Below, one piece after another: positions 20,696 through 38,059 of a stretch of DNA of 64,000 nucleotides. Both the position numbers and the translations under genes were made by a program. The notes under the pieces are model-generated. The model saw only the letters and a list, made by a program, of their open reading frames with translations. It was not told the DNA's origin and ran no database searches. The stretch is from contig NZ_CAMGYY010000002.1 in the NCBI RefSeq assembly GCF_946151045.1, positions 248,001 through 312,000 on the forward strand, in the 5' to 3' direction. The DNA comes from Mammaliicoccus sp. Marseille-Q6498. Its GTDB lineage: Bacteria > Bacillota > Bacilli > Staphylococcales > Staphylococcaceae. The number at the start of each line of letters is the position of its first letter. The first letter of the stretch is position 1.

Positions 20696-20745
20696 TAAAA
20701 AAACTGTCGACAGAGTCACTTAAAGTGAACTTGTTGGCAGTTTTT
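20696..20745 (+). terminator. Terminator after ytxH, copy A of a dispersed hairpin
   Basis: ACTGTCGACA...GTCACTT pairs with AAGTGAAC...TTGGCAGT and is followed by TTTTTT. The 33 bases from AGTCACTTAAAG to the T-run are identical to the terminator at 37826-37873. Confidence 0.8.
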
Positions 20746-20771
20746 TGTGTGTGAATCGGATTACATTCACG

Positions 20772-27739: not shown

Positions 27740-28164
27740 TTCTAACGACCATTATTCAGAATTCTGACCGTTAGAGAGTTCTAACGACCATTATTCGGAA
27801 TTGTGACCGTTAGCGGGTTCTAACGACCATTATTCAGAATTGTGACCGTTAGCGGGTTCTAACGACCATTATTCAGAATTCTGACCGTTAGAGAGTTCTA
27901 ACGACCATTATTCGGAATTGTGACCGTTAGCGGGTTCTAACGACCATTATTCAGAATTCTGACCGTTAGAGAGTTTTAACGACCATTATTCGGAATTGTG
28001 ACCGTTAGCGGGTTCTAACGACCATTATTCAGAATTCTGACCGTTAGCGCATTCTAACGACCATTATTCAGAATTGTGACCGTTAGCGGGTTCTAACGAC
28101 CATTATTCAGAATTGTGACCGTTAGAGAGTTCTAACGACCATTATTCGGAATTGTGACCGTTAG
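27740..28164. repeat. 11-unit, 39-bp tandem repeat
   Basis: Eleven units of 39 bp start at 27740 with a strict period. Each carries CTAACG and CGTTAG as inverted ends, 21 bases apart. The middle is TCAGAATTCTGA (a perfect palindrome) in four units, or the broken versions TCAGAATTGTGA (3) and TCGGAATTGTGA (4). Unit ends read GAGAG, GCGGG or GCGCA. Units 4-5 and 6-7 form an alternating 78-bp higher-order pair, so the array has grown by dimer duplication. Two further units occur at 37886-37958. No spacers are present, so it is not a CRISPR array. Confidence 0.97.
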
Positions 28165-28177
28165 AATATAATCCCTT

Positions 28178-28262
28178 GATAAAAAACGAAGACGCCTAAG
28201 CGTTTAGTACGAGTCGAAGACTACAGGCTGAGACTGTACCCTAGGCAAGCGAGTTTTTTATC
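28178..28262 (+). ncRNA. Structured element, copy 1 (candidate RNA)
   Basis: An outer stem GATAAAAAAC / GTTTTTTATC encloses GCCTA / TAGGC and an inner core with AGTCGAAGACT (4-bp stem, GAA loop) and CAG/CTG pairs. The 54 bases from 28205 are identical to those from 37998, while the outer arms differ but still pair. The strand is assigned only because both copies lie the same way; T-runs occur on either strand. The bases from 28263 to the fhs start hold no gene. Confidence 0.6.
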
Positions 28263-32690: not shown

Positions 32691-32917
32691 TAATTACATA
32701 GTGTAACGAACTAAAGGAGAAGTAGTGGTTATGTTCTTTTAAAGAGAGTCAGTGGTGCTGTGAACTGATAAAGAAGTAATGATGAATACACCTTTTATAA
32801 CAAAGTTCGACGTTTTAATGTACGTAACATTAATGAGCGATGATACGATTAGTGTCATAAGTATGGTGGTACCGTGTATTCAAGCACCCTTACATTTTTT
32901 TGTAAGGGTGCTTTTTA
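32691..32917 (+). promoter_or_regulatory. T-box leader controlling tyrS
   Basis: A classic T-box. The Stem I region includes AAAGAGAGTCAGTGGTGCTG. A tyrosine specifier codon UAC is seen in GAATACACC. The T-box proper is TGGTGGTACCGTG at 32864-32876. The terminator AAGCACCCTTACA / TGTAAGGGTGCTT with T-run follows (32882-32916). Uncharged tRNA-Tyr would favour the antiterminator and raise tyrS expression. Confidence 0.95.
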
Positions 32918-37814: not shown

Positions 37815-37825
37815 TATATAAATTC

Positions 37826-37873
37826 AGACTGCCAACAAAGTCACTTAAAGTGAACTTGTTGGCAGTTTTTTTG
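37826..37873 (+). terminator. Terminator after the acyltransferase, copy B of a dispersed hairpin
   Basis: ACTGCCAACA and TGTTGGCAGT arms, with an inner TCACTT/AAGTGA stem, run into T7. It shares 33 identical bases with the terminator at 20696-20745. Confidence 0.88.
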
Positions 37874-37885
37874 TTTGTTTCGGAA

Positions 37886-37958
37886 TTCTAACGACCATTA
37901 TTCAGAATTGTGACCGTTAGCGGGTTCTAACGACCATTATTCAGAATTGTGACCGTTA
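37886..37958. repeat. Two units of the 39-bp repeat
   Basis: Two units with the same 39-bp period and the CTAACG...CGTTA ends as the array at 27740-28164. Both have the TCAGAATTGTGA centre. The second lacks the final G of CGTTAG. They follow a terminator and precede the structured element, as at the first locus. Confidence 0.95.
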
Positions 37959-37967
37959 AAATTTAAA

Positions 37968-38059
37968 AACCGATTAAAAACGAGACGCCTGAGGGAATAG
38001 TACGAGTCGAAGACTACAGGCTGAGACTGTACCCTAGGCAAGCGAGTTTTTAAGCGGTT
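37968..38059 (+). ncRNA. Structured element, copy 2 (candidate RNA)
   Basis: An outer stem AACCGATTAAAAAC / GTTTTTAAGCGGTT (13 of 14 pairs) encloses GCCTGAGGG / CCCTAGGC (one bulge) and the same 54-base core as copy 1. The arms differ in sequence from copy 1 yet still pair. The region from 38060 to the next gene contains only AT-rich promoter-like sequence. Confidence 0.6.

What the first reader, a model, noticed from the sequence alone, without database searches (positions are those of the whole stretch)
28178..28262. Candidate structured RNA or DNA element with covarying stem (copy 1 of 2)
The element has an outer helix GATAAAAAAC/GTTTTTTATC around an identical 54-base core shared with 37998-38051. 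In the second copy the outer helix is AACCGATTAAAAAC/GTTTTTAAGCGGTT. The arm sequences differ but still pair, which is a sign of selection on structure. The core holds AGTC-GAA-GACT, CAG/CTG and GCCTA/TAGGC pairings. I cannot match it to a named RNA family. It could be a small RNA, an RNA thermometer-like leader, or a folded DNA element used by a transposase.
Basis: partly seen in the sequence, partly recalled or inferred. Interest (0 to 1): 0.82.

Follow-up and report, generated by a model that had tools for sequence, protein, structure and literature searches.

The report
Folded module of terminator-inserting IS elements
The paired, self-folding sequence in this staphylococcal genome is one of dozens of copies of a folded module carried by jumping genes that insert at transcription terminators; similar modules occur in many related bacteria, and what the fold does for the jumping gene is still open.

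Summary
The two window copies belong to a dispersed family: 84 matches in this genome; core-model matches in 70 of 108 Staphylococcaceae and 108 of 398 sampled Bacilli genomes. On 110 aligned copies the core fold covaries: 98% of cells paired, 10 of 11 pairs with two-sided changes; the outer arms covary too. Rfam holds part of it as tsr24. The module lies upstream of, and on the opposite strand from, an IS1182-family transposase gene in 10 of 15 staphylococcal and 17 of 30 other transposase loci examined. In this genome it is mostly carried by short elements without a transposase. Complete ISs of the 449-460-aa class are flanked by duplicates of a whole hairpin in 11 of 13 cases; 26 of 61 cap contexts of this genome have flanking direct repeats, 23 of them hairpins. 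The window copies show none, but their sites are empty in 7 of 7 and 4 of 5 readable relatives. tsr24 aligns with an IS1272-like left end. Role of the fold (cis-acting DNA hairpin or regulatory RNA): undecided.

The parts
28178..28262 (+).
   Evidence: tsr24 positions 125-209, 30.9 bits; R1, 73.4 bits
27741..28168 (+). Array of eleven 39-bp palindromic units (TCTAACGACC...GACCGTTAG) directly upstream of copy 1; no left terminal repeat found here
   Evidence: (no match near copy 1)
37968..38059 (+). Copy 2 of the folded module: outer helix AACCGATTAAAAAC/GTTTTTAAGCGGTT; core model match 37981-38047
   Evidence: tsr24, 52.6 bits; R1, 85.5 bits
37887..37958 (+). Two palindromic array units between the left end and copy 2
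37825..37872 (+). Left terminal repeat of the short element (CAGACTGCCAACAAAGTC...), itself a hairpin followed by a T run, i.e. terminator-like
   Evidence: 2 mismatches; resembles an end of the 459-aa IS of this genome (CAGAGTGTCGACAAAGTC)
20700..20746 (+). Solitary left terminal repeat of the same kind (3 mismatches), without array or cap

Best explanation
What it is: two old copies of a short transposable element without a transposase gene (left terminal repeat - palindrome array - folded cap - right terminal repeat) related to IS1182-family insertion sequences. The covarying structure is the cap, a subterminal module found in many, not all, IS1182-family elements of Bacilli, between one terminal repeat and the start of the transposase gene and on the opposite strand to it. 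How it spreads: an IS1182-family transposase inserts the element at a hairpin, often the intrinsic terminator at the end of a gene. Elements of the 449-460-aa class leave a copy of the whole hairpin on either side. What the fold does (inference): most likely it acts in cis as a DNA hairpin near the element's end that helps the hairpin-directed transposase complex; a regulatory RNA role is nearly as likely. Shown here: structure, distribution, linkage to the transposase, terminal repeats, hairpin duplication, empty sites. Inferred: which transposase moves the window's family, and the role of the fold.
For: Structure: 110 copies; 98.0% paired; 10 of 11 pairs two-sided; slid controls 22-48% paired; 104 arm pairs; native mean 26.3, swapped 13.3. 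Linkage: a cap is found in 11 of 15 PF13751 loci that I chose from Staphylococcaceae and lies upstream on the opposite strand in all 10 of these with an intact gene; upstream and opposite in 17 of 30 PF05598 loci of another family, otherwise placed in 2, absent in 11. Plasmid pAMT2 shows it upstream of an annotated IS1182-family transposase, inside inverted repeats. This genome holds two 459-aa IS copies with caps, ends CAGASTGTSGACAAA and exact 34- and 36-bp hairpin duplications. Hairpin duplication: 11 of 13 loci of the 449-460-aa class (10 exact, one with a mismatch), 0 of 16 longer ones; 26 of 61 cap contexts of this genome have flanking direct repeats against 1 of 177 swapped flanks, 23 of the 26 are hairpins against 134 of 520 random segments. 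Empty sites: acsA-fhs-like gap 741 bp here, 155-285 bp in 7 of 7 relatives; plsC-HAD-like gap 369 bp here, 156-189 bp in 4 of 5 readable relatives. DNA-level reading: G.T and A.C departures are 18:10 in the core and 29:30 in the arms, so there is no clear strand preference as expected of an RNA helix.
Against: The two window copies show no flanking duplication (absent from the list), no recognisable right end, and copy 1 no left end: their membership rests on cap, array and, for copy 2, one end. The caps of this genome's dispersed family differ in sequence from the caps of its own intact ISs, so the mobiliser is not proven. Four of 15 and 11 of 30 transposase loci have no cap. ISs of the same class without a cap inside (L259, L263, L269, L276) carry hairpin duplications too, and short elements without a cap but with duplications exist (L278, L281, L284 as read), so the cap is not strictly needed. 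The near-equal wobble count can also come from neutral decay. In one genome (G485) 9 of 10 caps read sit in a repeat with other ends.
Confidence: 0.7

Rival explanations
1. Regulatory RNA: the cap is the stable body of a small RNA read outward from the start of the transposase gene, in IS1272-like elements antisense to its translation start; it limits transposase synthesis, as RNA-OUT does for IS10 (recalled).
For: Orientation opposite to the transposase. In IS1272-like loci L172, L173, L176 a promoter-like TTGGTA-18-TATAAT preceded by TG, inside the first codons, points outward (share of 200 mononucleotide shuffles as good: 0.01, 0.015, 0.045). Inverted repeats lie between cap and the end repeat. 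The Rfam sRNA family tsr24 aligns with this end.
Against: No such site stands out in the other 16 of 19 loci scanned (0.16 or more). The core shows only a weak G.U over A.C excess (18:10). Short elements without a transposase gene keep the cap. A terminator-like site was found on the other strand in L141 and none in the stretches of L168 and L170.
Confidence: 0.3
2. Passenger: the cap is an independent hairpin repeat that has entered IS1182-family ends several times and is carried without benefit.
For: In the family of G371 elements with IS1272-like ends (G541) and 450-aa-type ISs (L258, L261) share similar arms (NTTGATTG.../...GGAAATCAAN on the cap strand). Many ISs lack it. G485 has caps in a repeat with other ends.
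Against: Orientation is the same in 27 of 28 loci where a cap lies upstream of a transposase (the exception, L269, has its weak match outside the hairpin duplication); compensatory changes are kept over many genera. I did not find ends or target duplications of the cap itself, but did not search for them systematically.
Confidence: 0.15
3. Palindromic repeats moved by a Y1/REP-associated (RAYT-like) transposase.
For: High-copy, hairpin-forming, intergenic repeats.
Against: No PF01797 match in G000, G001 or G007, the genomes of the genus that reached the scoring cap for copies; the duplications are mostly whole hairpins.
Confidence: 0.02
4. Host regulatory element (riboswitch, thermometer, leader) for the neighbouring genes.
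For: Copies lie between genes, copy 1 upstream of the fhs-like frame.
Against: Copies lie beside many different frames; sites empty in relatives.
Confidence: 0.02

Closest known systems
Rfam RF02577 tsr24 (S. aureus small RNA)
   Same: Positions 125-209 of the model are this cap; copy 2 passes the gathering score. The printed 3' part of the consensus aligns to the IS1272-like left end of pAMT2 with 126 identities over 161 columns (score 168, best of 100 shuffles 32).
   Different: The match of copy 2 over the first 120 positions is poor. The listing calls tsr24 an sRNA and names no insertion sequence. A review passage (PMC9266662, one passage read) lists Tsr as 'Tampa small RNA', found by RNA-Seq.
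IS1272 / IS1182 family (PF05598 + PF13751 transposases)
   Same: Cap, terminal repeats, hairpin targets. Wan et al. 2017 (PMC5678879; read: abstract, section 21, first of two parts of section 29, passages) report stem-loop targets of IS1272 and draw a pathway in which the whole stem-loop would be duplicated.
   Different: IS1272 in that paper replaces the stem-loop and leaves no duplication; here the 449-460-aa class duplicates it. What I read does not mention a conserved internal fold.
STAR elements of S. aureus
   Same: Dispersed intergenic repeats; a STAR motif lies inside or near the cap in 5 of 17 named stretches.
   Different: Another sequence (TNTGTTGNGGCCC; PMC3532100, first of five parts and passages read); the core motif is absent from the window.
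Stem-loop repeat families Sta-1 to Sta-4, Bhal-1 and others (PMC2267715, passages read)
   Same: Mostly intergenic structured repeats in S. aureus and B. halodurans.
   Different: Their sequences were not in the passages; identity with the cap not tested.

Membership tests
Rfam tsr24 | Score at or above the gathering cut-off (50 bits), copy 2 | tested here: met
   52.6 bits
Rfam tsr24 | Score at or above the gathering cut-off, copy 1 | tested here: not met
   30.9 bits, positions 125-209 only
Rfam tsr24 | Transcribed small RNA | not testable with these tools
   No RNA data for this genome
IS1182-family element without transposase | Terminal repeats matching an IS1182-family IS of the genome | tested here: inconclusive
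   Copy 2 left end with 2 mismatches to the family's end; right ends not found within 3 mismatches; seen in other copies of the genome
IS1182-family element without transposase | Insertion at a hairpin with duplication (short class) | tested here: inconclusive
   26 of 61 cap contexts have direct repeats, neither window copy among them
IS1182-family element without transposase | Site empty in relatives | tested here: met
   7 of 7 at copy 1; at copy 2 4 empty of 7, 1 with another array, 2 not readable
IS1182-family element without transposase | Transposase of the family in the genome | tested here: met
   4 PF13751 places in G000; two 459-aa and one 559-aa frame
REP / RAYT | Y1 transposase in the genome | tested here: not met
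   0 PF01797 matches in G000
STAR | TGTTGNGGCCC motif in the element | tested here: not met
   0 matches in the window

The most novel reading that the evidence does not exclude
IS1182-family DDE transposons carry a conserved structured nucleic acid, RNA or single-stranded DNA hairpin, that is a working partner of the transposase in finding or processing hairpin targets: a DDE transposition system assisted by its own folded element, with terminators as landing pads that are duplicated whole.
Probability: 0.15. Interest if true: 0.88.

Novelty: new variant of a known kind. Interest (0 to 1): 0.6.

Why it matters
It links an Rfam sRNA family (tsr24) to the end of IS1272-like elements, shows by covariation that many insertion sequences of one group keep a folded internal module over many genera of Bacilli, and gives natural examples of duplication of an entire hairpin target, a pathway drawn as a possibility in the IS1272 paper read here. 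It makes the question 'what does the fold do for a hairpin-seeking transposase' testable with simple mini-element assays, and it warns that structured intergenic repeats annotated as sRNAs may be transposon ends.

Tried and rejected
RAYT/Y1: no PF01797 match in this genome. Reverse transcriptase: one PF00078 match in G000, beside an hsdS-like frame, none in the 7 other genomes of the genus; rejected as general mobiliser. Genes between close cap pairs: in the 12 regions whose frames were listed I saw, by eye, no transposase between the caps; an IS150-like frame lies just outside one pair (L129). Promoter on the cap strand: only in 3 of 19 loci. Strand by wobble: no clear signal. Sequence strings in open papers: 206 papers hold at least one of six strings, the 40 listed look unrelated by title. 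tsr24 with S. aureus: 0 papers. IS1182 palindromes, and IS1272 with small RNA: nothing relevant among the 12 listed of each. Of the record collections only plasmids was searched. A pair count with a malformed bracket string is void. The first duplication scan used a loose pattern with false window rows and was replaced. Correction made on re-check: of 19 left repeats that one search lists without a cap, 16 were fetched and one of these (L287) does have a cap. Odds: best explanation lowered from 0.72 to 0.70 because of the exception L269 and the number of capless loci.

Full report
Observation. The arms, the 54-base identity and the fold are as described. Copy 2 is a tsr24 match over the gathering score; copy 1 matches positions 125-209 of that model below it.

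Copy number and range. In the window's own genome (G000, 2.64 Mb) blastn lists 40 copies of the 92-base element at 96% identity or more, the number at which scoring stopped, and the tsr24 model 84 at E<=0.001. A core model (R1, built from 27 copies) matches 70 of 108 genomes of the family, in 3 of 5 genera, 108 of 398 sampled genomes of the class, in 35 of 146 genera, and 101 of 121 genomes of the family of G371, in 19 of 19 genera. Ten diverse loci, two from Staphylococcaceae and eight from other families, gave no Rfam family at gathering score. These searches give no genome names; a pattern scan of named genomes hit Staphylococcus simiae, lugdunensis, schweitzeri and marylandisciuri in 17 stretches. 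That the window is from a Mammaliicoccus is only my guess from the small genus.

Structure. On 110 copies (104 distinct rows, aligned to the model, which leans towards it) 98.0% of cells pair; 10 of 11 pairs show two-sided changes; 253 such cells against 66 in shuffles; slid versions pair 22-48%. The outer arms, which were not part of the model's pairs, score 26.3 on average with their own partner and 13.3 with swapped partners; 53 of 104 exceed the 95th percentile of swapped pairs. G.U and A.C departures are 18 and 10 in the core, 29 and 30 in the arms.

What it belongs to. In plasmid pAMT2 the cap lies just upstream of an annotated IS1182-family transposase, inside inverted repeats that end in TTTATGTCCCAGACTC. 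I call this IS IS1272-like; the name comes from its fabI neighbour and from Wan et al., not from the record. Of 15 transposase regions I chose from the PF13751 search, 11 have a cap; in all 10 of these with an intact gene it is upstream on the opposite strand. Four have none (L175, L177, L178, L179). Of the 30 loci returned by a PF05598 search in the family of G371, 17 have a cap upstream on the opposite strand, two have one otherwise placed (L268 downstream; L269 upstream on the same strand, weak, outside the hairpin duplication), 11 have none. Many of those 30 genes are broken. Six proteins tested, five of them from that family, carry PF05598, PF13751 and PF01609, as do three staphylococcal ones.

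The dispersed elements here. Reading the flanks (whose output was cut in the middle) shows a composite: left repeat CAGACTGTCGACAAAGTC..., an array of palindromic units CTAAC...GTTAG whose inner arms differ between loci, the cap, and AAGTTTATCTACAAAC. Of 55 left repeats in the genome, 36 have a cap on the same strand within 1.4 kb in the coordinate lists and 19 do not; of 16 of these 19 that I fetched, one has a cap after all. 36 of 84 caps have such a left repeat. Two intact 459-aa ISs in the same genome have the ends CAGAGTGTCGACAAAG and CAGACTGTGGACAAAC and a cap.

Target duplication. Among 29 transposase loci, a flanking direct repeat that is a complete hairpin abuts both tips in 11: 34, 36, 52, 27, 27, 23, 24, 23, 21, 35 and 20 bp (the 35-bp pair has one mismatch); all are in the 13 loci of the 449-460-aa class, none in the 16 longer ones. 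For this genome, 26 of 61 distinct cap contexts fetched (of the 84) have a direct repeat of score 18 or more, against 1 of 177 swapped flanks; 23 of 26 are hairpins by a simple rule that 134 of 520 random segments also meet. Wan et al. 2017 (PMC5678879; parts named under Closest known systems) describe IS1272 as replacing stem-loops and draw a pathway in which the whole stem-loop would be duplicated; the short class behaves like that pathway. The window's two copies show no duplication, consistent with age or loss.

Empty sites. The gap before the fhs-like gene is 741 bp here and 155-285 bp in 7 of 7 relatives; the gap before the HAD-like gene is 369 bp here and 156-189 bp in four relatives, 576 bp with an unrelated palindrome array in one (L305), and not readable in two. 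The core model finds no cap at these sites in the relatives; its one match there, in L302, lies beyond the HAD-like gene. The relatives have terminator-like hairpins in several of these gaps; in copy 2 the left repeat, a hairpin with a T run, appears to take that place (my reading).

tsr24. The printed 3' part of the tsr24 consensus aligns with the IS1272-like left end of pAMT2 with 126 identities over 161 columns, also outside the cap (score 72 against a best of 40 in 200 shuffles). Its first 12 bases equal the IS bases just before, a match that alone is not above shuffles (24 against a best of 26); if real, STAR-like sequence separates the two. I conclude that tsr24 is probably a decayed left end of such an IS. 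I found no paper saying so in the searches named under Tried and rejected; most subscription papers are not in that library.

Role of the fold. For a role in cis: it is kept in short elements without a transposase gene, its wobble pattern has no clear strand preference, and it sits about 45-110 bp from one tip in the ISs read. Against: ISs and short elements without a cap carry duplications. For a regulatory RNA: the divergent orientation, a promoter-like site in three IS1272-like loci, tsr24. Against: no such site stands out in the other 16 loci scanned. I put cis-acting DNA at about 0.45, RNA at 0.3, passenger at 0.15.

Gene names acsA, fhs, plsC and HAD for the neighbours are recalled from the look of the proteins, not tested.

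Noticed in passing
window 27741-28168 and 37887-37958; L001-L030 upstream of the cap: Arrays of palindromic units whose outer bases stay CTAA...TTAG while the inner arms differ between loci but largely agree within a locus (CTAACGACC, CTAACTAG, CTAACGGG, CTAAGGAGC types), as if each array were rewritten as a whole.
   Followed up: partly
L305 (G005), gap between the plsC-like and HAD-like genes: An unrelated palindrome array (TCGTAGATTAACT...AATTAAGCGACGAG) sits in the same intergenic gap as copy 2.
   Followed up: no
L231, L234, L245 (S. simiae, S. lugdunensis): The core match is stretched to 119-122 bases and a STAR motif lies inside it, so a STAR-like sequence seems to have entered the cap's loop; L239 has the same spacing, L242 a STAR motif about 100 bases away.
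   Followed up: partly
L140 1060-2457: The only reverse-transcriptase-like frame found in G000, beside an hsdS-like frame; looks like a defence RT.
   Followed up: no
window 32706-32894: T-box leader just over its gathering score, upstream of a frame that looks like a tyrosyl-tRNA synthetase.
   Followed up: no
L220-L229 (G485): Nine of ten near-identical caps read sit inside a repeat with ends TATATACAAGGTGA / TCACCGTCTATATA, another kind of carrier whose mobiliser is unknown.
   Followed up: partly
L034, L042, L047, L052 (G007): Two caps of different type in opposite orientation about 140-370 bp apart, 3' ends outward.
   Followed up: no
L079, L086, L099: Caps in direct tandem with a period of about 130-230 bp.
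   Followed up: no
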